This document shows, in pieces, positions 114 through 41,501 of a stretch of 41,501 nt of DNA. The position numbers and the translations under genes are program-made. How positions within the stretch are numbered: the stretch's first letter is position 1; every line of letters begins with the position of its first letter. Under the pieces are notes generated by a model. The model was not told the DNA's origin. It did not search any database and saw only the letters and a program-made list of their open reading frames with translations. The DNA is from a virus. The stretch spans positions 1 to 41,501 of the IMG/VR virus record IMGVR_UViG_3300007038_000001; one strand, written 5' to 3'.

Positions 114-141
114 CTATACCAACGGTGTGTTACACCTTAAA
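114..141 (-). promoter_or_regulatory. Viral-regulon promoter P0, reading left
   Basis: Read on the - strand this is CGAAAG, then TTTAAG (141-136), then CACCGTTGGTATAG (127-114). The distance from the first T of the TATA box to the start of the CACC motif is 14 nt, the same as in the other copies at 1135, 1532, 6363 and 24857. Transcription should begin near position 113 and run off the left edge of the window. No - strand gene lies to its left here, so its target is outside the window, or is the late operon if the sequence is circular. Confidence 0.6.
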
Positions 142-1134: not shown

Positions 1135-1162
1135 TTTATAATGTTATACACCGTTGGTATAG
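1135..1162 (+). promoter_or_regulatory. Viral-regulon promoter P1
   Basis: CCAAAGG is followed by TTTATAAT (1135-1142) and CACCGTTGGTATAG (1149-1162), with the regulon's 14-nt spacing. The motif lies between TATA box and expected start, and TATAC/GTATA arms flank its centre. No long ORF follows for more than 400 nt, so this promoter appears to transcribe the structured region downstream. Confidence 0.6.
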
Positions 1163-1531: not shown

Positions 1532-1559
1532 TTTAAGGTGCAATGCACCGTTGGTACAG
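1532..1559 (+). promoter_or_regulatory. Viral-regulon promoter P2
   Basis: CCAAAAAC, TTTAAG (1532-1537) and CACCGTTGGTACAG (1546-1559) show the regulon's 14-nt spacing. Transcription should start near 1560, giving a leader of about 45 nt that begins with GAGGAG and ends GACAGATACT before the ATG at 1605. It should drive the 344-aa acidic protein. Confidence 0.65.
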
Positions 1560-2639: not shown

Positions 2640-2656
2640 GGTAGCTGACTGAATCC

Positions 2657-2695
2657 CTCAATAGTTTGAAATATACATGAAATATTTGAGGCGAA
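2657..2695 (+). repeat. Intergenic repeat, possible promoter
   Basis: CTCAATAGTTTGAAA followed by TATACATGAAAT is nearly repeated at 9002-9037, also between two + strand genes. The AT-rich core could serve as a second class of viral promoter. CTCAA (2657-2661) and TTGAG (2686-2690) form an inverted pair around it, and TGAAATAT occurs twice. Confidence 0.45.
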
Positions 2696-3461: not shown

Positions 3462-5012
3462 ATGACTGACATAGAAGTTGAGACGCCATCGCTTTATGAG
3501 ATACAACAGATGACGAGGGATGCAGATTTAGTGGGAGAAGAAGATACCGCGCTGACAATCGTACTGTCCATGCTTCGCGGCGGGCTTGTCATCATGACAG
3601 GCATGAGCCGTGGGGGGAAGGACATGGTGGTTGATTCCGCCGAGTACTGTTTCCCCGACGACCGAGTACACCAGTGGCCAAGTAGTAGCTCGCCTACGGC
3701 TCCCTTTGAAAAGGCCGACGAGCTTAACAGCAAGCCGGTCCACCGGTTCCCGGACCTTGCATCGCTTGACAAGCACATTGAGATTACCCTGAAAGCGTTC
3801 GGAGAAGGCAATTCAGTTGACCATGAGTATACAGACGTTAGTAAGCGGGGCGGGGAAGAACCAGCCCTGAGCGGGGCTACACTGCAACCGCCGAAGTGTC
3901 AGATTGCCTTTATCGCAAGCGACAATCAAGACCTGAATCTCAATGATTACCCCGAGGTTCGTAATCGTGGCCTTGTGGTCCCGGTTGACTCGTCAGAGCG
4001 ACTGACTCGGATGGTTACCGAGCGACAGGCAGAAAGGCGAGCAGGCGTGGCGGAGCGCCACGTTGACCCGCTTCGCACGGCACAGATTCGCCAATATCTT
4101 TCTGACGTTCCGGTTGACCAGTGGACGGAAGACCCGAACCACAAGATTCTGAACCCGGCAACAATCCCGATTCAGAGACAAGAGCCTATCCCGTACAAGT
4201 TCACCGAAGCGCGGCAGGACTTCGACCGAGTGCTTGAAATGATGGAGACTGTGGGACTGTATCACCACGCCGACCGGATGAAAGTCGAGCAGGGGTCCAA
4301 CAATGCGCTGCTGGTTACCCCGGCAGACTGTTGGTATGCCATGCGAGTGTTCGGTCAGCGGATGATTATGAGTACCCTGAATCTGCGCCGGGAAGACCGG
4401 GCGATTCTTGAGTACCTACGTGATACCCCAGCGCGGTCCTTCGACGTGTCCACCATTCAGCAAGACCTGCGTGACGCTGGATTCAATATCAGTACTCCGG
4501 CAGTTCGGCAGGCGTGTGAAGACATGGGCGAGCGGGGTTATGTTCAGCGGAACGATACCTCACCCATCACCTACTCGGCGTCCGACTTTGCTTCCCACGT
4601 CCGGTATGATGCTGGTATTGACTGGGACGTAGTTATCAATGGCGGCGACGTTGAGTACTGGAACGACGACGGTGAAAGAGAGCTTATGTATCAGCCCGGC
4701 ATGAAGGAAATCATCTACAACATGGTAGATGAAGAAACCGCTGACGAGTATGTTAGTCGCTACGCGACTGGCGACGGGCTGATTGTCACTGACCCCATTA
4801 CGGGAGAGCAGTTCGACATTACAGAGAACCCGCTGCGCGAAGAGATTCAGGAAGCCGACGACCAGATTGCAGAGCTTCTGAGTCAGAACCCTTACGACGA
4901 CACAGACGAAGACCAAGACGACCTCGGTGTGTTTGACGACGGGCAGGAAGAGGGAGACCTTCCGGGGCTTGACGAGCTTGAGGGTGAAGCACAGGGAACT
5001 CTGTCAGATTAA
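3462..5012 (+). CDS. P-loop ATPase with winged helix, candidate helicase
   Basis: This encodes 516 aa. The Walker A-like motif GMSRGGKD (G47-D54) is odd because Asp replaces the usual Ser/Thr after the lysine. A Walker B/sensor-like strand CQIAFIASDNQDLN (about residues 146-159) and RNRGLVVPVDSSERLTR follow, reminiscent of AAA+ proteins. Residues about 310-370 (AILEYLRDTPARSFDVSTIQ...RGYVQR) form a predicted winged helix. The C-terminal 80 residues are very acidic. Directly upstream of the primase, it is the best candidate for the replicative helicase or loader, as no MCM or DnaB-like gene is present. That role is inference. Confidence 0.65.
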   Translation: MTDIEVETPSLYEIQQMTRDADLVGEEDTALTIVLSMLRGGLVIMTGMSRGGKDMVVDSAEYCFPDDRVHQWPSSSSPTAPFEKADELNSKPVHRFPDLASLDKHIEITLKAFGEGNSVDHEYTDVSKRGGEEPALSGATLQPPKCQIAFIASDNQDLNLNDYPEVRNRGLVVPVDSSERLTRMVTERQAERRAGVAERHVDPLRTAQIRQYLSDVPVDQWTEDPNHKILNPATIPIQRQEPIPYKFTEARQDFDRVLEMMETVGLYHHADRMKVEQGSNNALLVTPADCWYAMRVFGQRMIMSTLNLRREDRAILEYLRDTPARSFDVSTIQQDLRDAGFNISTPAVRQACEDMGERGYVQRNDTSPITYSASDFASHVRYDAGIDWDVVINGGDVEYWNDDGERELMYQPGMKEIIYNMVDEETADEYVSRYATGDGLIVTDPITGEQFDITENPLREEIQEADDQIAELLSQNPYDDTDEDQDDLGVFDDGQEEGDLPGLDELEGEAQGTLSD

Positions 5013-5157: not shown

Positions 5158-6354
5158 ATGGTAGATGAAAATACACATGAAGCAGCAGCAATATGGACAG
5201 ACGCGTATCCCCGGAGAGTTACTAAACGCCAAGTTTGGGCTTATTCCCCGCAAGAGCTTCTTGCCGAGATAAGCAAGGTAGAGGGTGCTGAGCCGGGTTA
5301 CGTTAGTCTCTACTCGTTTCCGAACGGGCACACAAAAGACAACGCAATCCCACGGATAGACACGCTGTTCCTTGACTTTGATATTCCTGACGGTGCAGAG
5401 GAATCAGACGACTGGGAACACGAATTAAGTAAGCTTCTGGTACGGGCAAGAAGGCTCGCCCAAATTATTATTCAAGAGGGTAATCCAGAACATTGGCGTG
5501 TTACCTTGTCTGGCAACAAAGGGATACACCTGTTTCATGATTTCCCAGAGATAAGTAAGAAGCAAGGCACTTTCGGGCAGTTCTTGAATGGCGTAAACAA
5601 GTATGCCAACAGCCTTACGTCCCGGTTCACGGAGCTAACTGGTATCGGTGACCTTGACAGTTACATCGACGCCAGCGTTACCGGTGACCTTGGACGGCTG
5701 ACGCGGTTGCCAAATACTATCCATGAAAAAGCAACAGAAGCCCACGGAGAAACACGATACTGTGTCCCAGCGACCATCGAAGAGCTTGCAGAGTTGCGAG
5801 TTGGTGATTACATCCGACTCACCCGGTCAACCCGACCGGTCCCGGATTCCTGTAAAAGGAATCCAAATCAAGCGGCGCACGATGCACTTGTCCAGTACAT
5901 CCGAAACGCGCCAGTTGAACGCTCTCCCACTTCTCGCCAGCCGACAGTATACGATAACACTAGGATTCAAGACTACAAAAAGTATGCCAACGAAGAAATA
6001 GATGTAGAAGACCTTGATTTCGTCATGCAGAAACGTCCCTGTGTCAAGCGGTTTCTTCGGGATGAAGAAAGATTTAATCATGGGGGTCAGAGTCATGTGA
6101 TGGAGATGAAGGTCATCACAGAGCTACTTGCAGAGCAGGTACCGATAGATACCATCGTTGATGCATTTGACGAAGCGAGCATTGACGACAGTTTCAGTAG
6201 ACAGAAGACGTATAGTACAATAGAACGATATATCTCTGGCGACTTTCAGAACCCGTCCCCCGTCAACTGCAAGAAGGTATGGGACGAGCTTCCCTTTTTC
6301 AAGGATAGATACTGTGTTGGGGAAGACTGCGAGGTCTATAACAGAGAGCATTAA
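5158..6354 (+). CDS. AEP-type DNA primase with Fe-S-like tail
   Basis: This encodes 398 aa and should make primers for the viral replisome. It has the archaeo-eukaryotic primase signature: FLDFDIPD with metal-binding D73 and D75, SGNKGIHLF with H124, and GRLTRLPNTIHEKA, where an Arg/His pair contacts nucleotide. The C-terminal part has four spaced cysteines (C295 in PCVKRFL, C371, C386, C391 in YCVGEDC), as in the 4Fe-4S domain of the archaeal large subunit PriL. One chain therefore seems to combine PriS and PriL functions. It follows the ATPase gene. An AT-rich box precedes the ATG, with no Shine-Dalgarno. Confidence 0.85.
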   Translation: MVDENTHEAAAIWTDAYPRRVTKRQVWAYSPQELLAEISKVEGAEPGYVSLYSFPNGHTKDNAIPRIDTLFLDFDIPDGAEESDDWEHELSKLLVRARRLAQIIIQEGNPEHWRVTLSGNKGIHLFHDFPEISKKQGTFGQFLNGVNKYANSLTSRFTELTGIGDLDSYIDASVTGDLGRLTRLPNTIHEKATEAHGETRYCVPATIEELAELRVGDYIRLTRSTRPVPDSCKRNPNQAAHDALVQYIRNAPVERSPTSRQPTVYDNTRIQDYKKYANEEIDVEDLDFVMQKRPCVKRFLRDEERFNHGGQSHVMEMKVITELLAEQVPIDTIVDAFDEASIDDSFSRQKTYSTIERYISGDFQNPSPVNCKKVWDELPFFKDRYCVGEDCEVYNREH

Positions 6355-6362
6355 CCAAAACC

Positions 6363-6390
6363 TTTAAGTTATACCACACCGTTGGTATAG
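6363..6390 (+). promoter_or_regulatory. Viral-regulon promoter P3 with operator
   Basis: CCAAAACC, TTTAAG (6363-6368) and CACCGTTGGTATAG (6377-6390) have the 14-nt spacing. Here the motif is part of a perfect 7-bp inverted repeat, TATACCA-CACCGT-TGGTATA (6371-6390 region), which sits between TATA box and start and looks like an operator. GAGGAGG follows, then the ATG at 6417. Confidence 0.7.
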
Positions 6391-6416: not shown

Positions 6417-7616
6417 ATGGAACAAGATAATATTACGCCCCGACAGTCTGAGGTACTTGAATATCTCTCTCGTGTCGGGCGAAGTTCTGCTGGTGAGATA
6501 GCGACTGAGCTATCAATTCCAACAAAAAGCACAGTTTATGACCATATCAGTGCGCTGAATAGTGCAGGGTTCACCATTGCTAACACCGACGGCGAGTACC
6601 TGTACGTTGACGAGTCTCAGGACGACGGCGTAGCTAACCCCGTTAGTCGCGTCCCGGACCAAGTAGCACAGCAGACTATTACTAAGAAGGCAAACAAGTC
6701 TCTGGCTCAGATAAAAGAAGAAATTATGTCTGAGCTAGACAGCAAAGAGCAGCCCGTAGCAGACGGTGGGATGACTTACAATGCTGGTAATCAAGACATG
6801 GTTATCCCGTGTCACGACGACCACTTCGGGGAGGTTGTTAACGACGAATTTGGTAACGAAGAATTCAATTCTCACATAGCTGAAACGCGAGTTTACGAGC
6901 GTTTCGATGAAGTTGTCCGTCAGAAAAACGGTCGTGAGGCCATGGGCGATGAAATCGACACACTACACATCCCCCTCAACGGGGACATTGTAACGAACGA
7001 AGCTATTTATCGTTCCCAGCCTCACCACATTGACGCCAAGGTTCGTGACCAAGTTCGTCAGGCCGCTGAAGTTTACCTTGATAACATCAAGCGCATGAGC
7101 AATGTGTTCCCCTCCGTGCAGGTTATCTGCCAGCACGGTAACCACGGCGAGTTCCGTGTTGATGGGGCCAGCGGGCAGGCTAATGCCGACGACCTGCTTT
7201 ACGCGATGCTCGATATGCTAATCCGTGAGAATCAGGAGCATGGTGACCTTAGCAACGTTACCCTCAAGTACTCCGACGAAACGGATTACATGAACTTCAC
7301 GATGCGAAATGGGAATATTAAGGCCCATATGCGCCACGGAGACAATGCCCGAAATCATATTGGCACTTCCAGCCCGCAGTCTGATTGGCTGTTCTGGCTT
7401 GCCAAGCACGATTTCGACATTGCGTACCGTGGTCACTATCACGAATACCGGCTAGAGCCACTGCCGGACGGCACGCCCGTTCTTGAAGGTGGCAGTATCA
7501 AAGAACCGGGCCAGTACGAAGAAGAGCTTGGTGTTGGAGGTAACCCCACCAACATCATCCACGGTGTATCAGACAACAATCCAATAACATGGCAGGAACG
7601 AGTTCTTTTCCGATGA
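6417..7616 (+). CDS. HTH-metallophosphoesterase fusion
   Basis: This encodes 399 aa. Residues 1-65 form a winged helix (TPRQSEVLEYLSRVGRSSAG...STVYDHISAL). Residues about 125-399 form a calcineurin-type metallophosphoesterase with all metal motifs: D134xH136 in HDDHFGE, GD190, GN242H243, HGDN and GHYHEYR. Related enzymes include Mre11/SbcD nucleases and phosphodiesterases, but the Mre11 partner Rad50 is absent. It may process DNA ends or act as a DNA-targeted phosphatase. Driven by its own regulon promoter P3, it heads a new transcription unit between primase and nuclease. Confidence 0.8.
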   Translation: MEQDNITPRQSEVLEYLSRVGRSSAGEIATELSIPTKSTVYDHISALNSAGFTIANTDGEYLYVDESQDDGVANPVSRVPDQVAQQTITKKANKSLAQIKEEIMSELDSKEQPVADGGMTYNAGNQDMVIPCHDDHFGEVVNDEFGNEEFNSHIAETRVYERFDEVVRQKNGREAMGDEIDTLHIPLNGDIVTNEAIYRSQPHHIDAKVRDQVRQAAEVYLDNIKRMSNVFPSVQVICQHGNHGEFRVDGASGQANADDLLYAMLDMLIRENQEHGDLSNVTLKYSDETDYMNFTMRNGNIKAHMRHGDNARNHIGTSSPQSDWLFWLAKHDFDIAYRGHYHEYRLEPLPDGTPVLEGGSIKEPGQYEEELGVGGNPTNIIHGVSDNNPITWQERVLFR

Positions 7617-7885: not shown

Positions 7886-8263
7886 ATGACTAACGATTAC
7901 AACAAACGGGCCGACAAGTACTCTGTTGAAAACGGCGGCGAAATTCGGCGGGACGGGACGCCAGTACTTGTCTCTGCTCCCAACGGGCAGGTCGTAGAGA
8001 AGAACGTAGAGCATTACACAATTGAATGTCCTGAGTGTGGCTCAGTTGGACGGACAAAAGAGAAGGGCGAAATTATCTGCGAAGACCCGGAGTGCGCGGT
8101 AGTTATTAGCGACGACCCACCGCTCGCTTACGAAGAGTACAACCAGCAGACCCACAACGAAGCGGCAACGATGGGCGCTAGTATCGGGGGTAAGTCCGAA
8201 AGCAAGGCGGCCCCCCGACCCGACGCAGGAACAGCAAGCAGCGGCGAAGCGGAGTCAGTATAA
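7886..8263 (+). CDS. TFIIB-type zinc-ribbon protein
   Basis: This encodes 125 aa. Residues about 46-75 read IECPECGSVG, then GEIICEDPECAVVIS. That is the CPECGS...GExxC...C.xVI pattern of the zinc ribbon by which archaeal TFB (TFIIB) contacts RNA polymerase, with two extra residues in the second knuckle. The cyclin folds that bind TATA-TBP are absent, and the C-terminal 45 residues are low-complexity. It may be a small viral transcription modulator, but other zinc ribbons can look alike. Confidence 0.6.
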   Translation: MTNDYNKRADKYSVENGGEIRRDGTPVLVSAPNGQVVEKNVEHYTIECPECGSVGRTKEKGEIICEDPECAVVISDDPPLAYEEYNQQTHNEAATMGASIGGKSESKAAPRPDAGTASSGEAESV

Positions 8264-8833: not shown

Positions 8834-8999
8834 ACTTGAAAACGAACGGCGTATTGAGACGGAAGTAACGCATAGTCAGTGGCCGAACTACGTCAAGCTC
8901 AAGGTTAACCTTGTAGAAGATATAGACACAGGCCCCGACGACGAACGACAAGCATCGTGGCAATGGAACATTGAAGACCAGTGGATACGGTTGAGCTAA
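8826..8999 (+). CDS. Small beta-rich protein
   Basis: This encodes 57 aa from the ATG at 8826 inside the end of the previous gene. A longer frame exists upstream but overlaps heavily. Alternating strands (RRIETEVTHSQWPNYVKLKV, SWQWNIEDQWIRLS) suggest a small barrel. No family is recognised. Confidence 0.5.
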   Translation: MIELENERRIETEVTHSQWPNYVKLKVNLVEDIDTGPDDERQASWQWNIEDQWIRLS

Positions 9000-9001
9000 C
9001 G

Positions 9002-9040
9002 CTCAATAGTTTGAAAATATATGAAATGTCGAGCGAAGCG
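9002..9040 (+). repeat. Intergenic repeat, possible promoter (second copy)
   Basis: CTCAATAGTTTGAAA followed by ATATATGAAATG resembles 2657-2690. Directly after it, GAGCGAAGCGAGAC shares GAAGCGAGAC with the other dispersed element family. It lies between the stop at 8999 and the ATG at 9048, so it may start a new transcript. Confidence 0.45.
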
Positions 9041-10968: not shown

Positions 10969-11170
10969 TCTGACGACCATAACATTTATTGCAAAGGCAT
11001 ATCAACTGCCGGAAGAGATGGTGGACGACCTCATAAGTTTCCTTCGACGGGAGATTGCGAGGGCCGAGGTGTTGGGAGAACAGGAACGCAAGGAAAAGCT
11101 ACTTACAGACCTAGGGACGCTTGAAGCACAGCGCAAAGAGGCTCCCTTGGTTGAGTACCGAAAAGAATAA
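10949..11170 (+). CDS. Small helical protein
   Basis: This encodes 73 aa, overlapping the nuclease by 20 nt. Two helices dominate (EEMVDDLISFLRREIARAEV and EQERKEKLLTDLGTLEAQRK). No family is recognised. The overlap suggests coupled synthesis with the nuclease. Confidence 0.55.
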   Translation: MSVANCNLTTITFIAKAYQLPEEMVDDLISFLRREIARAEVLGEQERKEKLLTDLGTLEAQRKEAPLVEYRKE

Positions 11171-11193
11171 GTAGCCATACCCCCTTGGTATAG
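11166..11193 (+). promoter_or_regulatory. Viral-regulon site P4 (weaker copy)
   Basis: CCCCCTTGGTATAG (11180-11193) matches the regulon motif at 12 of 14 positions, within ATACC-CCCTT-GGTAT. The box 14 nt upstream is only AATAAG, so the promoter may be weak. GAGGAGG follows 12 nt before the ATG at 11207. Confidence 0.45.
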
Positions 11194-11206: not shown

Positions 11207-11614
11207 ATGAGCGAGTCATTATACGATTTCATAGATATAGATGAGCCGTTTGTCGAACCATTGGCAAACGTCCCCCACCCAACGAAAGAAAAGAGCGTAG
11301 GCATTGTTGGAAACGTCCAACCGAGAAACAACAAGCGGGGTTATGTTAGCCACCGTCGCAGACACGGCCCCGAAAAGGGCTTCTTTGAGAAAGGTAACGG
11401 ATATTCCATTTCTGACGAGGTTCTGCGGAAGCTTATGCGGTTTGATGTTAAATTTGTATACATTGCAGAGACAGACACCGGAAAGGTACATGAATTTAAC
11501 ATAAATTCATTTATCAACGGACAGCGATTTGACGAAGGCGACCCACAGCATTGTGCAGAGATTAACAGCGCAATCAAGACGTGGGAAGACCATGAAAGTG
11601 AGTTAATAGTGTAA
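11207..11614 (+). CDS. Hypothetical early protein
   Basis: This encodes 135 aa with ribosome site GAGGAGG. A basic, probably flexible stretch (PRNNKRGYVSHRRRHGPEKG) precedes a compact domain with helix SDEVLRKLMRFDVKFVYIAE and the TGKVHEFNINSFIN strand pair. The basic arm could bind nucleic acid. It sits under the P4 site and heads a short coupled run leading to PolB. Confidence 0.6.
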   Translation: MSESLYDFIDIDEPFVEPLANVPHPTKEKSVGIVGNVQPRNNKRGYVSHRRRHGPEKGFFEKGNGYSISDEVLRKLMRFDVKFVYIAETDTGKVHEFNINSFINGQRFDEGDPQHCAEINSAIKTWEDHESELIV

Positions 11615-12030: not shown

Positions 12031-15000
12031 ATGATAACCATTAATGTTACCAACATGGAAACTGTTGGAGACGGCGATGTAAAGCTATATGGAAGAACCG
12101 AGTCCGGGGAGCATGACACGATAACAGTGACAGGCTTCGACCCATACTTCTACGCCCCGGCACTTGAATATTCCAAGAACAAAGATGAACTATCCGCAGA
12201 CGAGCGGGTTCTGAACATTGAGGCCACCGACAAGACGCCTCAGCTTGGCGACGACACGCTTGTTAAAGTTGTTGTTGACAAGCCGTGGGAAGTGAGCAAG
12301 GTTGCGAACCAGCACTTCAGCGACCATTTTGAAGCCGACGTGTGGATTGATAACCGACTCCGTATCGACCACGGAATATACACTGGCGTCAAGGCACCGC
12401 AGCGAGAAGTGACCGCAGAACAGCTTGAACCGGTCACGATGGAGGTTGAACCCCGGGTTGTAACCTTCGACATTGAAGTTGACGAACGGGGACTTGACTT
12501 TAGCAACCTTGGCACCAACAGAATCCTGAGCATCGTTGCTCACGATAGCCAAGAAGACGAATACATTGGGTTCATCGACTCCGGTGGGAGAGAAGTGGAC
12601 GAGATGTTCCCAGATGGGTGTCCAGATAACCTTGATACCCTGTTCGTTGACAACGGAGAGCGACCGACCCTTATTCGGTTCGCGTCGTGGATAGACGAAA
12701 AGAACCCAGACCTAATCACGGGCTGGAACAGCACCGGGTTCGACGTACCGTATCTCGTAGAGCGAATGGAGCGAGTGTGTGGCACCGCTTCTCGCCTGTC
12801 CAGAGAAGGCTACGCTGAGGTAGGCGACTACGGAGACGTTACCATCAAGGGCCGGACGACGTATGACTTGATGGACGTTTACAAGAAAAACCGCTTCTCT
12901 GAACTACGGAGTTATTCGCTTGATTTCGTCGCCCAAGAAGAGCTTGGGGAAGAAAAGATTACCCACGACCTCGGGTTCTACGAGATGTATGAGCAGGACC
13001 CAACTTCGTTGATGGAATACAACGCCATGGACGTTCGCTTGACTGTGGGTATCAATGAAGAGACGGACGCAATTTCGTTCCGGGATTCCATTCGGCAGGA
13101 AATCGGCACCAACTTTGAGGAAACGCTGAACAGCAGCGACTTCATTGAAATGATGGCCCGCCGCAAGCTCCACGAAAACGGACTTGTCGGCAGGACTACT
13201 GACTACGGGCGAGAAGAGTCAGACTACGAGGGCGGGTATGTGTTCGACCCATACGACGGCGTAGCCAAGAACGTGGTCGGCATCGACCTTGCTTCGCTGT
13301 ACCCGAACACGATGGCGATGATTAACGCTGGCCCAGAGGCTCGGGTCGAGAGCGGCGGCGCGTTAATGGAAAACGGTATGACCGACTTGGGGACTGACCC
13401 CCGGGGTAACACTGTTACAACCCGGGCAGCACACGCCCCGAACGGGGCTGTGTTTGACCTTTCTGAGCCGACCATCCTAACGTCTCTTGTCAACGACGCA
13501 CTCGGCCTCAAAGCTGAGTATGGCAAGAAAAAGAAAGAGGCACCCGGGGGTTCTGCTGAAGAAGCAGCACTTGAGGAACGGTATAATGTCAGCAAGACGA
13601 TAGTTAACAGCCTTTACGGAGTGGTTGGTTGGGAAAAGTTCTTCATGTACGACGAAGCTACTGCCGAAGCAGTTACCCTTATGGGGCAGGCAGTTATCAA
13701 ACGTACCGCAGAATACATCGAGGAAGACACGGAAGCTACAGTTGCCTACGGAGACACCGACTCCGTGCCCGCTGAAGAACCAGTTCTTGTTCGTGATATG
13801 AATGGTAACGTTCAATATCGTGAAATTCAAGAACTTGTGGGTAGAGAAGATGAGTTTGAAGCGTGGACTGAAGGTGGGTTTACTGGAATAAAGAAAGTTT
13901 GGGAAAAGCCAAATAGGAAAACAAATTATACTGTTAGGACAAAGACTGGTCTTGTGCATTGTACGGAAGACCATTCCCTTGTTCACGCAGATGGGTCTGA
14001 AATAAAACCCGGAGAACTAACAGACGGCACTCGCTTGCTTCATAGAGATGTTTCTGAAGCCATCGGTGATGGTGAAGAAACCATTTCCACAGACCGGGCG
14101 TGGTTGTATGGATTCTTCGCCGCTGACGGTAGTGCAGGAATAGTGGAGAAGCATGGGTTTTCAATTAGTAAGAACAATCTTGACTTACTTGAACGCGCTT
14201 CAGAAATTCTGTCGTCAGAGTTTGGAATTAACTCCAAAATCCATGATTATCGAGAATCGTCAGGTGTTCACAAACTTCAATTAACCAACAACGGAGACGT
14301 TGAGTGGGGTGGTGTCAATGATGCTATCGACCACTTCGTTGATGTATCGTATACCAAAAGCCGAGAGAAGTGTGTCCCATCTGAAGTAATCAATGGAACG
14401 GAAGAAATTGTTGAAGCATTTCTTGATGGATACATGGGTGGCGACGGTTACGTTGGTGAACGATACGACAAGCGATTCCATGAAGCTGACACAAAGGATA
14501 TTCACCTTGCGTCGGGTCTGACAATGTTGCTTCAACGGCTTGGTTACACATTCAACATCAACTATCGTCGTAATTATGGTAACGAATATTACAAAATCCG
14601 TTGCCAGAAGTGGCATCGTGGCAATCCAGAGGAAGTTGTTAAAGTGGAAGAATACGACTACGACGGTGAATATGTGTATGACATTGAAACCGAAAACCAC
14701 CACTTCCAAGCTGGCGCTGGGAACATGATTGTTCACAACAGCAACTACATCAAGTTCCCCGACGACTACACGCAAGAGAAGTGTCTTCGTCGCACATCGG
14801 AGATATGTGAGGAACTTAACAACGTTGTCTACCCGGAGCTTGCCGAAGAACACGGTATCCCGGCAGAAGACAACCGTTGGGAAATTGAGATTGAGAAGTA
14901 CTTTGAACGCTTCTTTCAATACGGACGTAAGAAGCGTTATGCATACAAGGCTACATGGAAAGAGGGTATGGAACAATACAGCGATACGTTAGATTCGCCA

Positions 15001-15522
15001 GAATATGACATGACCGGCATGAACAATCAGCGGTCGGACGTGTCCCTTCTTACGAAAGACTTGGAAAAAGATGTTGTGCGGGCCATTCTCGACGGTAAAG
15101 ATAAGACTACTATCGGGAGCATCGTCCACGACTATGCGACCGAGATTGACCCCGTTGACCCCGACTGGGAACGCATCGGTATCCCGGGCGGTTTCGGGCA
15201 AACGTGGTCGGAATACGACAGCGAAACAGCCCACCTTCGGGCAGCACGTAATGCTAATGAGATACTTGGCACCAACTTCGACGGCAGTAGCAAACCCATG
15301 CGCTGTTACCTGCAAGAAGGCGGGAAGCATGACATAGACGTTATCGCATACGACAACAACGAAGACCTGAGCGAAGCTGAGAGCGAGCTACGGATGAACG
15401 CCAGCAGAATGTCAGAGACGGCAATCATCAATCCGATGGAAGGGATACTTGACTCGGCGGGTATCGACGTTCAGGCGGCCATGAAAGGCCAGCTACAGAG
15501 CGGGCTAGAGGCGTTCATGTGA
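12031..15522 (+). CDS. polB: Family B DNA polymerase with intein
   Basis: The precursor is 1163 aa. The N-terminal part has the 3'-5' exonuclease motifs FDIEV (D147, E149), ITGWNSTGFDVPYL and YNAMDV. The polymerase part has motif A GIDLASLYPN (D419), motif B KTIVNSLYG (K522) and motif C YGDTDS (D575, D577), then KKRYAYK. An intein interrupts motif C (residues 578-903). After splicing, the enzyme is 837 aa and reads YGDTDSNYIKF. It should replicate the viral genome with the primase and ATPase encoded upstream. The start directly follows a 9-codon ORF stop. Confidence 0.95.
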   Translation: MITINVTNMETVGDGDVKLYGRTESGEHDTITVTGFDPYFYAPALEYSKNKDELSADERVLNIEATDKTPQLGDDTLVKVVVDKPWEVSKVANQHFSDHFEADVWIDNRLRIDHGIYTGVKAPQREVTAEQLEPVTMEVEPRVVTFDIEVDERGLDFSNLGTNRILSIVAHDSQEDEYIGFIDSGGREVDEMFPDGCPDNLDTLFVDNGERPTLIRFASWIDEKNPDLITGWNSTGFDVPYLVERMERVCGTASRLSREGYAEVGDYGDVTIKGRTTYDLMDVYKKNRFSELRSYSLDFVAQEELGEEKITHDLGFYEMYEQDPTSLMEYNAMDVRLTVGINEETDAISFRDSIRQEIGTNFEETLNSSDFIEMMARRKLHENGLVGRTTDYGREESDYEGGYVFDPYDGVAKNVVGIDLASLYPNTMAMINAGPEARVESGGALMENGMTDLGTDPRGNTVTTRAAHAPNGAVFDLSEPTILTSLVNDALGLKAEYGKKKKEAPGGSAEEAALEERYNVSKTIVNSLYGVVGWEKFFMYDEATAEAVTLMGQAVIKRTAEYIEEDTEATVAYGDTDSVPAEEPVLVRDMNGNVQYREIQELVGREDEFEAWTEGGFTGIKKVWEKPNRKTNYTVRTKTGLVHCTEDHSLVHADGSEIKPGELTDGTRLLHRDVSEAIGDGEETISTDRAWLYGFFAADGSAGIVEKHGFSISKNNLDLLERASEILSSEFGINSKIHDYRESSGVHKLQLTNNGDVEWGGVNDAIDHFVDVSYTKSREKCVPSEVINGTEEIVEAFLDGYMGGDGYVGERYDKRFHEADTKDIHLASGLTMLLQRLGYTFNINYRRNYGNEYYKIRCQKWHRGNPEEVVKVEEYDYDGEYVYDIETENHHFQAGAGNMIVHNSNYIKFPDDYTQEKCLRRTSEICEELNNVVYPELAEEHGIPAEDNRWEIEIEKYFERFFQYGRKKRYAYKATWKEGMEQYSDTLDSPEYDMTGMNNQRSDVSLLTKDLEKDVVRAILDGKDKTTIGSIVHDYATEIDPVDPDWERIGIPGGFGQTWSEYDSETAHLRAARNANEILGTNFDGSSKPMRCYLQEGGKHDIDVIAYDNNEDLSEAESELRMNASRMSETAIINPMEGILDSAGIDVQAAMKGQLQSGLEAFM
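13762..14739 (+). mobile_element. Intein with DOD homing endonuclease in polB
   Basis: This 326-aa insert runs from Ser578 to Asn903 of the precursor. Splicing features are the Ser1 nucleophile, T645-x2-H648 in block B, the terminal HN pair (H902, N903) and Ser904 as +1 residue. The two LAGLIDADG motifs are LYGFFAADGS (D699) and FLDGYMGGDGY (D805). The DNA is visibly more AT-rich than the flanking polymerase, which suggests later acquisition. Insertion at the polymerase active site YGDTD/S is a favoured intein position. Confidence 0.93.
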
Positions 15523-15947: not shown

Positions 15948-16477
15948 CCCTTTCAAACGAAAACATCAAAGAAGAGTTGTATGGCGGCGGTATTGACGTA
16001 CAGTACGATGGGTCGTATTACATTGGTCCATCGTCTATGGACTTTCATCTGTGGCCAAATCTGCTTGTCTCTGAGACAGGCGGGAAGGTGAAGGTAGATG
16101 AAGAAGGCACATATCCCAACTATAGTTATAAAAAGGGGTTAACCATCGGTCCGGGGGAATTTGTTTTGGCCACCACAGAAGAAAATGTTTCCCTCTCTGA
16201 AGAGTTTGTTGGTTATGTCCAAGGCCGGTCGTCGGTTGGTCGGCTTGGGTTACAGGTGGAAAACGCCGGGCTTGTTGACGCTGGCTTCAACGGGCAGATA
16301 ACCTTGGAACTAAAGAATCAAGAGGATTACTGGATAGAGCTTGTCCCCGGGATGCGTATTTGCCAAATGACGTTCCACCGGCACGAAAATGTCCCCGACG
16401 TAGGATACAGCAATCAAGGTAAGTACCAAGGCCAAGAAGGTCCGACTCCGAGCAAGCTGTATGAGGATTTCCAATGA
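15944..16477 (+). CDS. dcd: dCTP deaminase / dUTPase family protein
   Basis: This encodes 177 aa. The signature GRSSVGRLGLQ (R95-S97) and GLVDAGFNGQITLELKN fit the trimeric dCTP deaminase/dUTPase fold. E122 aligns with the catalytic Glu of dCTP deaminases, and the C-terminal GKYQGQEGPTPSKLYEDF with their nucleotide lid. It should produce dUMP for the ThyX encoded just downstream and keep dUTP out of viral DNA. Whether it deaminates, hydrolyses or does both cannot be told from sequence. It starts 4 bases before the previous stop. Confidence 0.88.
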   Translation: MTLSNENIKEELYGGGIDVQYDGSYYIGPSSMDFHLWPNLLVSETGGKVKVDEEGTYPNYSYKKGLTIGPGEFVLATTEENVSLSEEFVGYVQGRSSVGRLGLQVENAGLVDAGFNGQITLELKNQEDYWIELVPGMRICQMTFHRHENVPDVGYSNQGKYQGQEGPTPSKLYEDFQ

Positions 16478-17983: not shown

Positions 17984-18619
17984 CTACAGAACGTTGTGGA
18001 AGGCGAGAAGGCGGGTTGCCATGTCTGCCTCCCACCGAGTCCGTGTCTCTATATCAGTCTCTTTTCTCGTCGTCTCAATGAGGTATGTCGGTATGCCCCA
18101 TTCGGACGATAGCTTGTGGTAGAGCATCGGGCTATTGGCCCGCGTTCGACCACGAAGGAAGTTGTAATTTCTTCCGTATTCTGACGTAAGGATGTTTTCT
18201 GTGTTGAATTTTTCAATGATATTGGCAAGACTAATCGAGTAATCGGTTGGCGTGTGGAATACTGCCTGACCAATCCCGTCGTCGCCAGTCCCGAGGATTC
18301 CCTTGGAGCTGTGTAGGTCGATGAACACGTCGGGGTTAACCTCTTCGACGTGGTGCCACAGTTCCCTTGCGAGAGGACTTGCGGGCATCTCGTTGATGGG
18401 GAAGTGCCGGTTAAGGTTACCGCCACTATAGTTGTGGCTGCCTTTTTCAATGGCTTCCTTGTTCACCTCGGGGATGATGTGGAGCCTTCCGGCCTGAACA
18501 TCGAAGTTCGTAAGATGGTGTGCGGCGTGCCAACCAGCAGGTTCGTCGCCGTGAACACCGCCAGTGACAAGAGCGACTGGCCCACCCGCATTACCTTCTA
18601 TTTCATAGGATTCAAGCAT
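17984..18619 (-). CDS. M14/AstE-AspA type zinc hydrolase
   Basis: This encodes 211 aa. The fold's motifs are complete: GGVHGDE (zinc ligands H23, E26), GGNLNRHFP (substrate binding N70, R71), DLHSS (third ligand H103) and YLIETTR (catalytic E182). This is the family of succinylglutamate desuccinylase, aspartoacylase and M14 carboxypeptidases. It should cleave an acyl or C-terminal peptide-like bond, substrate unknown. It is the last gene of the late arm with its own TATA box upstream, so it may be expressed separately. It may be an accessory gene acting on host metabolites or the cell surface. Confidence 0.8.
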   Translation of the reverse strand: MLESYEIEGNAGGPVALVTGGVHGDEPAGWHAAHHLTNFDVQAGRLHIIPEVNKEAIEKGSHNYSGGNLNRHFPINEMPASPLARELWHHVEEVNPDVFIDLHSSKGILGTGDDGIGQAVFHTPTDYSISLANIIEKFNTENILTSEYGRNYNFLRGRTRANSPMLYHKLSSEWGIPTYLIETTRKETDIETRTRWEADMATRLLAFHNVL

Positions 18620-24523: not shown

Positions 24524-24847
24524 TTATGATACCCCAAATGAGAAATCCTCTGTCTGGTCGTAGGAAATGGTAACGTTGTATGTATCTTTCTCTTCTATAC
24601 TTCGTTCAACAACAATAGATTGAATTGAATCAATCCGGTCGTTTTCCCTCGCCGCTCGGCGCGTCTTTAGTTTCAATTGCTCTTCAACTTTAGAGTAGTT
24701 TGTCTCTCCTATCTCGGAAAAGAAGTACAAGCTAACCTGAAGAGCAATCGACTGTTCCACTTCGGCACGTCCTTCTACTGTGCCAAGGTCGTTTCGGTCA
24801 TCTATGAAAACGTCAAAGTCTTCATCTAATGCTATGTCTTGAGCCAT
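24524..24847 (-). CDS. Baseplate wedge protein, gp25/gpW-like
   Basis: This encodes 107 aa from the ATG at 24847. A longer frame to 24916 would translate the upstream promoter-like region and is unlikely. LVTGE-like processing is absent, but GRAEVEQSIALQVSLYFFSE, GETNYSKVEEQ and YNVTISYDQTEDF fit the gp25-like wedge family. It joins the sheath to gpJ. The 105-base gap upstream carries an opposing promoter and a dispersed element. Confidence 0.85.
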   Translation of the reverse strand: MAQDIALDEDFDVFIDDRNDLGTVEGRAEVEQSIALQVSLYFFSEIGETNYSKVEEQLKLKTRRAARENDRIDSIQSIVVERSIEEKDTYNVTISYDQTEDFSFGVS

Positions 24848-24856
24848 ATCGGTAGT

Positions 24857-24884
24857 TTTAAGTTGTAGTATACCGTTGGTAGTG
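24857..24884 (+). promoter_or_regulatory. Viral-regulon promoter P5, antisense to the late operon
   Basis: TTTAAG (24857-24862) and TACCGTTGGTAGTG (24871-24884) show the same 14-nt spacing as P0-P3. It points along the + strand, against every gene nearby. Transcription would start near 24886 and pass through the element at 24931-24955 into the antisense strand of the spike gene. The BRE-like A-run of the other copies is missing. Confidence 0.5.
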
Positions 24885-24925
24885 TGAGAAGAACGTCGGA
24901 ACAGGTAATGTAACAAAGGTTCTCT

Positions 24926-24956
24926 GTAACAGGCAAGAAGCGAGACACACTGTTAC
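24926..24956 (+). repeat. Dispersed element, copy D, in an inverted repeat
   Basis: GTAACAG (24926-24932) and CTGTTAC (24950-24956) form a 7-bp stem around the element core GGCAAGAAGCGAGAC. The 25 bases 24931-24955 match 41403-41427 at 24 positions. On the - strand the repeat begins at the stop codon of the spike gene. It may end the short RNA from P5. Confidence 0.6.
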
Positions 24957-40327: not shown

Positions 40328-40633
40328 TCAGTCAATCTGCCCGTTGAGAAACATATCAACTGTCTCTGGCTTGGCCACAAGAACGTTTTCGTCGCGCTGC
40401 ATTTCAGGGTTATCCGGCACCGCAATCACGTCAGTGGGGACCGAAGCCTCGATTTTCGGGTAATAGTGCCGACTGTTGGCCTTTATTACAATGGGGTTAT
40501 CCTCATAAGAAAGCCGCTCGGCCATCTCAAAAGACATTACAGGGTAATCCTTGTCCCAATCGACAAGTCGGACCTGCTCAGTCGTAATGAAATACCCCGC
40601 AGACCAGTCGTTAAGCGAATTCGTCGGCGTCAT
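40328..40633 (-). CDS. Hypothetical protein between terminase subunits
   Basis: This encodes 101 aa from the ATG at 40633, which overlaps the small terminase end by 23 bases. A longer frame to 40678 is less likely. It is beta-rich (DWSAGYFITTEQVRLVDWDK, NPIVIKANSRHYYPKIEASV) and ends VLVAKPETVDMFLNGQID. No family is recognised. It may modulate packaging. Confidence 0.6.
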   Translation of the reverse strand: MTPTNSLNDWSAGYFITTEQVRLVDWDKDYPVMSFEMAERLSYEDNPIVIKANSRHYYPKIEASVPTDVIAVPDNPEMQRDENVLVAKPETVDMFLNGQID

Positions 40634-41372
40634 AGCTGTGATTATCCGGGTCAAGCATTGCTTTCCCCATTTCCGCAAAGTCCTTGATTACGTCGTTGGC
40701 ATCCGAAGCCGTTTCTTGCTTCAGCCGCTCTTTCCGCGAGATACCGAGCTGATTTTCCAGTCGCATGATAAGTTTGCGCTGGCGCTGCATCATATCAGAA
40801 AGATAATGCTCTGTATCCTCATACCCAACGGAACCGTCGGGTCGCACAACCTCTTTCTCGTGCTTCTCGCCTTCACGCAGAATATAGCCCTCGCCATGCT
40901 CTGCACGGACAATTTCTACAGCAAGCGCGTGAAAGTCATATGCAGATGCGGGGTCTTCCTCAAGGTCAATGCCGTATGCCTTGGGCCAGTCCTCCACAAT
41001 CCAGTCGTACATCTGCTTCATCCATTCTGCTTGGGCGTTCTGGTTATCGGGGTTCGCCGCGCCCTTTTCGATGTACTCGTAGAAGTTATCTCGCGTTGCT
41101 GTTAGTCCGTGGGTCATGTTACCAAATTTGTCTTTAAGATTTTCTGGTGTTGGGCTACTTCCGCTTCCTTCTGCGCCGCCATGGTAGTAACACCGGTTTG
41201 ACTCGCCGCGAGTATACTGCGAACAGAGTCTCGGTGGTCCGTCGTAGTCTTCCGGCTGGTTATTAATTTCTGCAAGGCAAAACGTTTCTTCAAACTGGCC
41301 ATCCCCTGTCCACTCTTCTTTCCAATTCTGTACCTGTCGTGGGGACTTGCCAGTTATTTCTTGTTTTGCCAT
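40611..41372 (-). CDS. terS: Putative small terminase subunit
   Basis: This encodes 253 aa. It begins with a Lys/Arg helix, followed by a Cys/His cluster (FCLAEINNQ...RLCSQYTRGESNRCYYHGG) that probably binds zinc. Then come GNMTHGLTATRDNFYEYIE and a long helical region (YLSDMMQRQRKLIMRLENQL). The zinc motif plus 'MTHGLxA' is familiar from haloviral and archaeal terminase-associated proteins. First gene of the late arm and directly upstream of terL, it should recognise the packaging site. Confidence 0.75.
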   Translation of the reverse strand: MAKQEITGKSPRQVQNWKEEWTGDGQFEETFCLAEINNQPEDYDGPPRLCSQYTRGESNRCYYHGGAEGSGSSPTPENLKDKFGNMTHGLTATRDNFYEYIEKGAANPDNQNAQAEWMKQMYDWIVEDWPKAYGIDLEEDPASAYDFHALAVEIVRAEHGEGYILREGEKHEKEVVRPDGSVGYEDTEHYLSDMMQRQRKLIMRLENQLGISRKERLKQETASDANDVIKDFAEMGKAMLDPDNHSYDADEFA

Positions 41373-41501
41373 AGTTACTATTGTTCAATATTACCCTGTT
41401 ACAGGCAAGAAGCGAGACGCACTGTTAAAACGTTTATTGTACCAAGGTAAGAACGTTACCTTAGTCTGTACCAACTAACAATAATACATTGGAACAAGGT
41501 A
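41373..41501 (-). promoter_or_regulatory. Right-end control region upstream of terS
   Basis: This gene-free region carries the dispersed element E (41403-41427) and an inverted repeat AAGGTAA-GAACG-TTACCTT (41444-41462), which echoes the AAGGTAACCTT palindrome at 88-98. No regulon promoter with the 14-nt spacing is found here, so the late operon's promoter is either a different AT-rich box or lies beyond the edge. AT-rich boxes such as AATAAACG (- strand) are possible. Confidence 0.5.
41403..41427 (+). repeat. Dispersed element, copy E
   Basis: It begins AGGCAAGAAGCGAGACGCAC and matches 24931-24955 at 24 of 25 positions. In the late transcript (- strand) it would appear as the complement, in the leader about 30 nt before the terS start codon. 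Confidence 0.65.

What the first reader, a model, noticed from the sequence alone, without database searches (positions are those of the whole stretch)
6361..6390. A viral regulon: the same operator-like motif at a fixed distance in six promoters
CACCGTTGGTATAG or a close variant follows a TATA box with exactly 14 nt from the first T to the motif start at 141 (- strand), 1135, 1532, 6363 and 24857, with a weaker copy at 11166-11193. In the best copy it is part of the inverted repeat TATACCA-CACCGT-TGGTATA between TATA box and start site. Fixed spacing in otherwise different sequence implies a shared regulator or initiation element. The regulator is not identified; candidates are the 58-aa divergent gene (853-1029), the TFIIB-like ribbon (7886-8263) and the HTH-phosphoesterase (6417-7616).
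Basis: partly seen in the sequence, partly recalled or inferred. Interest (0 to 1): 0.7.

Follow-up and report, generated by a model that had tools for sequence, protein, structure and literature searches.

The report
Shared promoter family of a halovirus
A virus of salt-loving archaea carries the same promoter sequence in at least five places; it is a new version of a known promoter set from halovirus HF2, and related viruses keep such promoters at the same genome positions with the same spacing but with a different shared sequence in each lineage.

Summary
TTTA[A/T][A/G] followed after exactly 14 nt by CACCGTTGGTATAG (up to 3 mismatches) occurs five times in 41.5 kb, against 0.003 expected by shuffling; a sixth, weaker copy (11166) lacks a good TATA box. 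The combination is absent from 292 haloarchaeal genomes and occurs only as single, chance-level hits in IMG/VR. The window is a member of, or close to, the haloarchaeal myovirus family Hafunaviridae. [quoted passage not shown] Published work shows these are promoters: TATA at -26, start site inside the conserved gamma block, active without viral proteins. A model trained only on HF2-type repeats ranks four window copies as the top four of about 83,000 positions. So the motif is most likely a core promoter block (proximal element plus start site) read by host TBP/TFB/RNA polymerase, probably modulated by a viral factor. 'Operator' remains a hypothesis. What appears new is that Haloferacalesvirus, Mincapvirus, Laminvirus and the window each carry their own shared element at overlapping syntenic sites. 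One site, conserved between the window and HRTV-25, points antisense into the tail genes. Start sites and regulator are inferred.

The parts
114..141 (-). class I-like promoter: TATA box TTTAAG (141-136) and element CACCGTTGGTATAG (127-114), reading leftwards off the contig; equivalent of HF2 IR1c
   Evidence: next to the homologue of HF2_220 (206-514; phrog_12980), as IR1c is in HF2
1135..1162 (+). class I-like promoter: TATA TTTATA (1135-1140), element CACCGTTGGTATAG (1149-1162); equivalent of HF2 IR2 by position
   Evidence: scores only 2.6 with the HF2-type model, its TATA box being TTTATA
1532..1559 (+). class I-like promoter: TATA TTTAAG (1532-1537), element CACCGTTGGTACAG (1546-1559), upstream of ORF 1605-2639; equivalent of HF2 IR3 by position
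   Evidence: 22.8 bits with the HF2-type model; ORF 1605-2639 is a distant homologue of HF2_270
6363..6390 (+). class I-like promoter: TATA TTTAAG (6363-6368), element CACCGTTGGTATAG (6377-6390) with inverted repeat TATACCA/TGGTATA; start site inferred at about 6390; upstream of ORF 6417-7616
   Evidence: 17.7 bits; HRTV-25 has its own class element at the same place (L124 20744)
11166..11193 (+). weak copy: AATAAG in place of TATA (overlaps the stop codon of the upstream ORF), element CCCCCTTGGTATAG, upstream of ORF 11207-11614
   Evidence: 30.2 on the profile of the four core copies; next non-family site 12.3, the reverse of the 1135 copy; not among the top sites of the HF2-type model
24857..24884 (+). 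class I-like promoter in the tail-gene region, pointing antisense to the late operon: TATA TTTAAG, element TACCGTTGGTAGTG
   Evidence: top site of the HF2-type model, 27.5 bits; HRTV-25 has its own class element in the homologous gap in the same orientation (record 24811-24838)
24923..24952 (-). candidate class II-like (late) promoter repeat, copy 1, in the gap upstream of the gp25-like gene 24524-24841
   Evidence: 28/30 identical to the copy at 41395-41424; same gap as HF2 class II repeat at 54918-54965
41395..41424 (-). candidate class II-like (late) promoter repeat, copy 2, right end, upstream of ORF 40611-41372
   Evidence: same relative place as HF2 class II repeat at 76604-76651

Best explanation
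[quoted passage not shown] Host TBP binds TTTAAG, TFB contacts the A-rich stretch just upstream (CCAAAA/TCGAAA), and RNA polymerase starts at or next to the G of TATAG, about 26-27 nt after the first T of the box. This gives transcripts that begin with a purine-rich leader (GAGGAGG-like) before the start codon. The promoters drive the leftward nuclease module, the genes after it, and the replication genes; one fires rightwards, antisense to the tail genes. Because all copies within one virus share the element while related genera have a different one in all copies, a virus-encoded factor that recognises the element and sets its timing or strength is likely, but not required for basal activity. 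Shown: the repeat, the spacing, the similarity to HF2 class I promoters, the synteny. Inferred: start sites, timing, existence and identity of the viral factor.
For: Significance of the combination. Cross-genus homology: a two-block model trained on HF2-type promoters (Haloferacalesvirus isolates plus one related IMG/VR contig) puts 24857, 1532, 6363 and 141(-) first to fourth in the window at 15.8-27.5 bits, next site 8.1; 0.07 sites above 15 bits are expected in random sequence, and of 17 TTTAAG sites in the window only these four score above 3.2. The distance from TATA to CCGT is identical in HF2 and the window, and an intermediate exists in L161. HF2 class I repeats are proven promoters with the start site in the gamma block, and mutating TATA or the start region abolishes or severely diminishes activity (PMC8707807). 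Positions match HF2 IR1c, IR2 and IR3. HRTV-25 carries its own TATA-anchored element (TTA-N14-AATAAGTGGGT, 5 exact copies, control 0) at four of the same sites in the same orientation, and HSTV-2 has three copies of another (GTTAAGTC-N9-CGTTTAGTTTAGTGA, control 0). The window combination is absent from 292 haloarchaeal genomes, so it is viral, not a host regulon.
Against: No transcription data for this virus. Copy 1135 scores low with the HF2-type model (2.6 bits) and copy 11166 has no real TATA box. Without the TATA block the HF2-type model still ranks 24857 first and 1532 third, but 6363 and 141(-) fall out of the top ten, so much of the cross-genus signal comes from TATA plus spacing. No close relative of the window was found in which conservation of the exact motif could be tested (best relatives about 42% protein identity for ORF 3462-5012). 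A viral reader protein is not identified.
Confidence: 0.85

Rival explanations
1. The motif is the operator of a virus-encoded repressor or activator (a true regulon), with a dyad ACC-N3-GGT or TATACC...GGTATA overlapping the start region so that binding blocks or recruits RNA polymerase.
For: Inverted repeats ending in the motif exceed chance across the six copies (P = 0.002); HF2 IR4.5 replaces the gamma block by a dyad ATAGTACC-GTCT-GGTACTAT, and in eight haloferacalesviruses the arms are kept while the loop changes between GTCT and GTATC; all copies in a lineage share the element while other lineages have another in all copies.
Against: Two of six copies have no extended dyad, and arm and loop lengths vary; the homologous HF2 block is needed for basal activity in a host without viral proteins; no regulator identified; the left part of the genome, where HF2's candidate regulators lie, is not in the contig.
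Confidence: 0.4
2. The copies are remnants of a dispersed repeat or of recombination between promoters (gene conversion), conserved by recent copying and not by function.
For: Core copies are nearly identical over 14 nt; HF2-type viruses are known to recombine (PMC8707807).
Against: Similarity stops at functional boundaries: the 8 nt between TATA and motif, and the flanks, differ freely; copies sit upstream of genes at positions where other genera have their own promoter elements.
Confidence: 0.05
3. A host (haloarchaeal) promoter or regulator motif borrowed by the virus.
For: Archaeal viruses use host TBP/TFB, and the TATA box and upstream A-rich stretch are of host type.
Against: The combination was not found in any of 292 genomes drawn from the class of Halorubrum; the element differs between virus genera that infect overlapping host genera.
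Confidence: 0.05

Closest known systems
Class I intergenic repeats (IR1c, 2, 3, 4, 4.5, 5c, 6) of halovirus HF2 and other haloferacalesviruses (Russ et al. 2021, PMC8707807)
   Same: Multi-copy promoters of early/middle genes; CTTTAAG TATA box; same distance from TATA to the CCGT block; start-site block ending in TAGAG/TATAG followed by GAGG; same positions relative to homologous genes for IR1c, IR2, IR3
   Different: Block reads CACCGTTGGTATAG instead of CCCGTCTATTAGAG; no alpha and beta blocks (TATA not followed by TC); additional copies upstream of the phosphoesterase gene (6363) and inside the late region pointing antisense (24857); no experimental data
Repeated promoter-like element of Halorubrum tailed virus 25 (Laminvirus), recognised here
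   Same: TATA-anchored element at fixed spacing (TTA-N14-AATAAGTGGGT, five copies); four copies at sites syntenic to 141(-), the 1135/1532 group, 6363 and 24857, same orientation
   Different: Different sequence; not described as promoters in the papers read here
Class II intergenic repeats of HF2 (late promoters, active in both directions)
   Same: The window has a near-identical 30-bp pair at the two syntenic places (24923-24952, 41395-41424)
   Different: Unrelated sequence; promoter function in the window untested

Membership tests
HF2 class I intergenic repeat promoters | several copies per genome, located between genes of the early/middle (replication) half | tested here: met
   141(-), 1135, 1532 and 6363 (and weakly 11166) lie in the replication half; 24857 lies in the late half, an exception
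HF2 class I intergenic repeat promoters | beta block: 12-nt sequence with TATA box CTTTAAGTC | tested here: not met
   CTTTAAG is present in three core copies, but the following TC and the rest of beta are not
HF2 class I intergenic repeat promoters | gamma block CGTCTNNTAGAG spanning the start site | tested here: not met
   Replaced by CCGTTGGTATAG[A/T]G at the same distance from TATA; related by a model scan but not the same sequence
HF2 class I intergenic repeat promoters | alpha block (CTAAAGACTTAGAA-like) upstream of the BRE | tested here: not met
   Not seen upstream of the window copies; A-rich CCAAAA/TCGAAA instead
HF2 class I intergenic repeat promoters | promoter activity with start at G about 26 nt after the TATA start | not testable with these tools
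   Needs primer extension or reporter assay; the G of TATAG lies at +27 from the first T
Viral regulon under one regulator (operator) | a protein that binds the shared element | not testable with these tools
   No candidate singled out; the named candidates are conserved in relatives with other elements or match nothing
Hafunaviridae (host virus of the window) | homologous core genes in the conserved order (primase, phosphoesterase, Cas4-like nuclease, PolB; tail, capsid, portal, terminase on the other strand) | tested here: met
   portal 65% identical to HRTV-25; the 53 phage records with a match in each of the three protein searches (ORF 3462-5012, primase, portal) are all HF1/HF2-type haloviruses

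The most novel reading that the evidence does not exclude
In Hafunaviridae the promoter set is conserved in position, spacing and orientation, but its start-site element has been exchanged in concert at all sites between genera (window: ACCGTTGGTATAG; Haloferacalesvirus: CCGTCTATTAGAG; Mincapvirus: CGTTTAGTTTAGTG; Laminvirus: GAATAAGTGGG). This would mean each genus encodes its own cognate initiation-region factor, an archaeal-virus counterpart of phage middle/late promoter switching that works at the initiator rather than through a new polymerase or sigma factor. One conserved site fires antisense into the tail genes as a brake on late expression.
Probability: 0.25. Interest if true: 0.75.

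Novelty: new variant of a known kind. Interest (0 to 1): 0.5.

Why it matters
How tailed archaeal viruses time their genes with only the host RNA polymerase is open; for HF2, virus-encoded factors acting on class I/II repeats were proposed but not found. A third sequence version of the repeats, with others recognised in HRTV-25 and HSTV-2 at matching positions, turns that into a comparative problem: the factor should co-vary with the element, and swapping elements between genera in a reporter is a direct test. The conserved antisense-pointing copy offers a concrete source for the long counter-transcripts reported in HF2.

Tried and rejected
TATA plus motif in IMG/VR: 89 stretches, each with one match, about what chance predicts for a collection of that size (my estimate); no other contig shows a repeated family. 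Single-protein search for close relatives found none; alignments gave only relatives around 30-44% identity. Relatives of a virus record cannot be drawn. tRNA or Rfam element at the motif: none. RNA hairpin as the conserved unit: rejected because the dyad lies mostly upstream of the inferred start. Host regulon: rejected. The plain HF2 pattern with TAGAGTG is absent from the window; only the two-block profile links them. A first HSTV-2 pattern failed because I counted the spacer one base too long, corrected.

Full report
WHAT THE WINDOW IS. The contig is a fragment (41.5 kb; named relatives are 57-78 kb) of a haloarchaeal contractile-tailed virus related to Hafunaviridae. ORF 3462-5012 and the primase ORF 5158-6354 each match 53 records of the phage collection, all of them HF1/HF2-type haloviruses. 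The portal protein is 65% identical to Halorubrum tailed virus 25 (HRTV-25, Laminvirus) and about 50% to most others. Gene order (nuclease module, ORF 3462, primase, phosphoesterase, PDDEXK/Cas4-like nuclease, PolB, dCTP deaminase, thymidylate synthase; then tail-to-head genes on the other strand) matches HF2 and HRTV-25 in outline.

THE OBSERVATION. All six sites exist as described. Five have TTTAAG or TTTATA with its first T exactly 14 nt before the motif. Dinucleotide shuffles give 0.003 such combinations; the window has five. A profile of the four core copies ranks 11166 and 24857 next (30.2 and 28.5; the next site, 12.3, is the reverse strand of the 1135 copy), so both weaker copies are probably genuine. 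For 11166 the TATA box is degenerate and overlaps the preceding stop codon, so I keep it as weak. Upstream of the box there is a shared A-rich stretch (CCAAAA, TCGAAA, CCGAAAA) where a BRE would lie.

HOMOLOGY TO HF2 CLASS I PROMOTERS. HF2 has repeated AT-rich intergenic sequences that drive a reporter, start at a G in the conserved gamma block with TATA beginning at -26, lose activity when TATA or the start region is mutated, and work in Hfx. volcanii without other viral genes (PMC8707807). Aligned on the TATA box, HF2 reads CTTTAAGTCcTTAGtTCCCGTCTATTAGAGTGAGGAG and the window CTTTAAGTTATACCACACCGTTGGTATAGAGGAGGC: the CCG lies at the same distance, and both end in TAG[A]G plus purines. L161 (CTTTAAGTCATTGGCTACCGTCTATAGAGTG) is intermediate. 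As a test, a two-block profile trained on 13 haloferacalesvirus sites and 3 L161 sites was run over the window: 24857 (27.5 bits), 1532 (22.8), 6363 (17.7) and 141- (15.8) come first, next 8.1. Random sequence of the same dinucleotide make-up gives 0.07 sites above 15; of 17 TTTAAG sites in the window only these four exceed 3.2. Caveat: with the TATA block removed only 24857 and 1532 remain near the top. The window elements therefore work like HF2 class I repeats and are probably homologous, but do not meet the literal HF2 sequence definition (alpha, beta and gamma blocks differ).

SYNTENY. 141(-) stands beside the homologue of HF2_220, as IR1c does; 1135 and 1532 lie between that gene and the HF2_270 homologue, as IR2 and IR3 do. 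HRTV-25 lacks the window motif, but a search for TATA-anchored repeated words revealed its own element, TTA-N14-AATAAGTGGGT: five exact copies, none with the pattern reversed. They lie at the IR1c-equivalent, after the LAGLIDADG gene (IR2/3-equivalent), upstream of the phosphoesterase (equivalent to 6363), near the left end, and in the gap between the gp25-like gene and the next tail gene, pointing rightwards as 24857 does. HSTV-2 (Mincapvirus) has GTTAAGTC-N9-CGTTTAGTTTAGTGA three times, two of them at the IR1c/IR2-equivalent places. Positions and spacing are thus kept while the shared element differs by lineage. This is the most interesting result; it rests on one genome for Laminvirus, one for Mincapvirus and one for the window.

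THE ANTISENSE COPY. 24857 points against the late operon, in the gap upstream of the gp25-like gene (24524-24841; homologue of HF2_510). In HF2 the same gap holds a class II repeat that drives a reporter in both directions. The window has in that gap, and at its right end, a near-identical 30-bp pair (24923-24952, 41395-41424) at the two places where HF2 has its two class II repeats; the sequence is unrelated to HF2's. HF2 makes long counter-transcripts; a conserved rightward promoter here could make one. This is inference.

OPERATOR OR INITIATOR? Four of six copies have an inverted repeat ending in the motif (arms 4-7 bp; P = 0.002 post hoc). In HF2-type viruses IR4.5 has a dyad at the same place whose arms are kept in eight viruses while the loop changes. 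So a dyad-binding protein is plausible, but the homologous HF2 block is needed for basal activity without viral proteins, so the primary role is core promoter.

HOW COMMON. TATA plus motif: 0 of 292 genomes from the class of Halorubrum; 89 IMG/VR stretches with one match each, which is about chance by my estimate; 119 or more occurrences of the bare motif in IMG/VR, one with TATA by a loose test.

VERDICT. A real, functional-looking promoter family; a new variant of the HF2 class I repeats, with evidence for concerted divergence between genera. Start sites, timing and any regulator remain to be shown by experiment.

Noticed in passing
window 2655-2692 and 8998-9023; L124 around 17335, 17740 and 26340: A second shared element, roughly AGT.TGAAA(A)T..ATGAAA, between short complementary arms (CCTCAA/TTGAGG, CCGCCC/GGGCGG) in front of genes in both the window and HRTV-25. 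In several copies the arms differ but stay complementary while the loop is kept: perhaps an RNA hairpin or another promoter class. The 2655-2700 stretch folds better than shuffles (z -3.2).
   Followed up: partly
window 24923-24952 and 41395-41424: Near-identical 30-bp pair GT[A/T]ACAGGCAAGAAGCGAGAC[A/G]CACTGTTA at the two positions where HF2 has its class II late promoters; shorter matches to GGCAAGAAG(C)GAGA at 27 and 16513.
   Followed up: partly
window about 1205-1240: tRNA T-arm-like sequence GGTGGGGTTCGACCCCTCACC just after the 1135 promoter; ARAGORN and Rfam find no tRNA. HF2 has tRNA-Arg after IR2, and HRTV-25 has a tRNA-like sequence at L124 about 16163-16245: possibly a decaying viral tRNA.
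   Followed up: partly
window 12031-15522: PolB gene of 1163 aa carries an intein with LAGLIDADG endonuclease (Pfam Intein_splicing 598-903, LAGLIDADG_3); HRTV-25 and HF2 PolB genes are about 830-855 codons long, too short to hold it.
   Followed up: no
L262 (CP071306.1 1944386-1965795): Relative of window ORF 3462-5012 (42% identity) in the chromosome record titled Actinarchaeum halophilum YIM 93972: probably a Hafunaviridae-like provirus; no copy of the class I element found there.
   Followed up: no
window 17984-18619 (-): Predicted succinylglutamate desuccinylase/aspartoacylase-like protein (Pfam PF24827, E 1.4e-10) at the junction of early and late halves.
   Followed up: no
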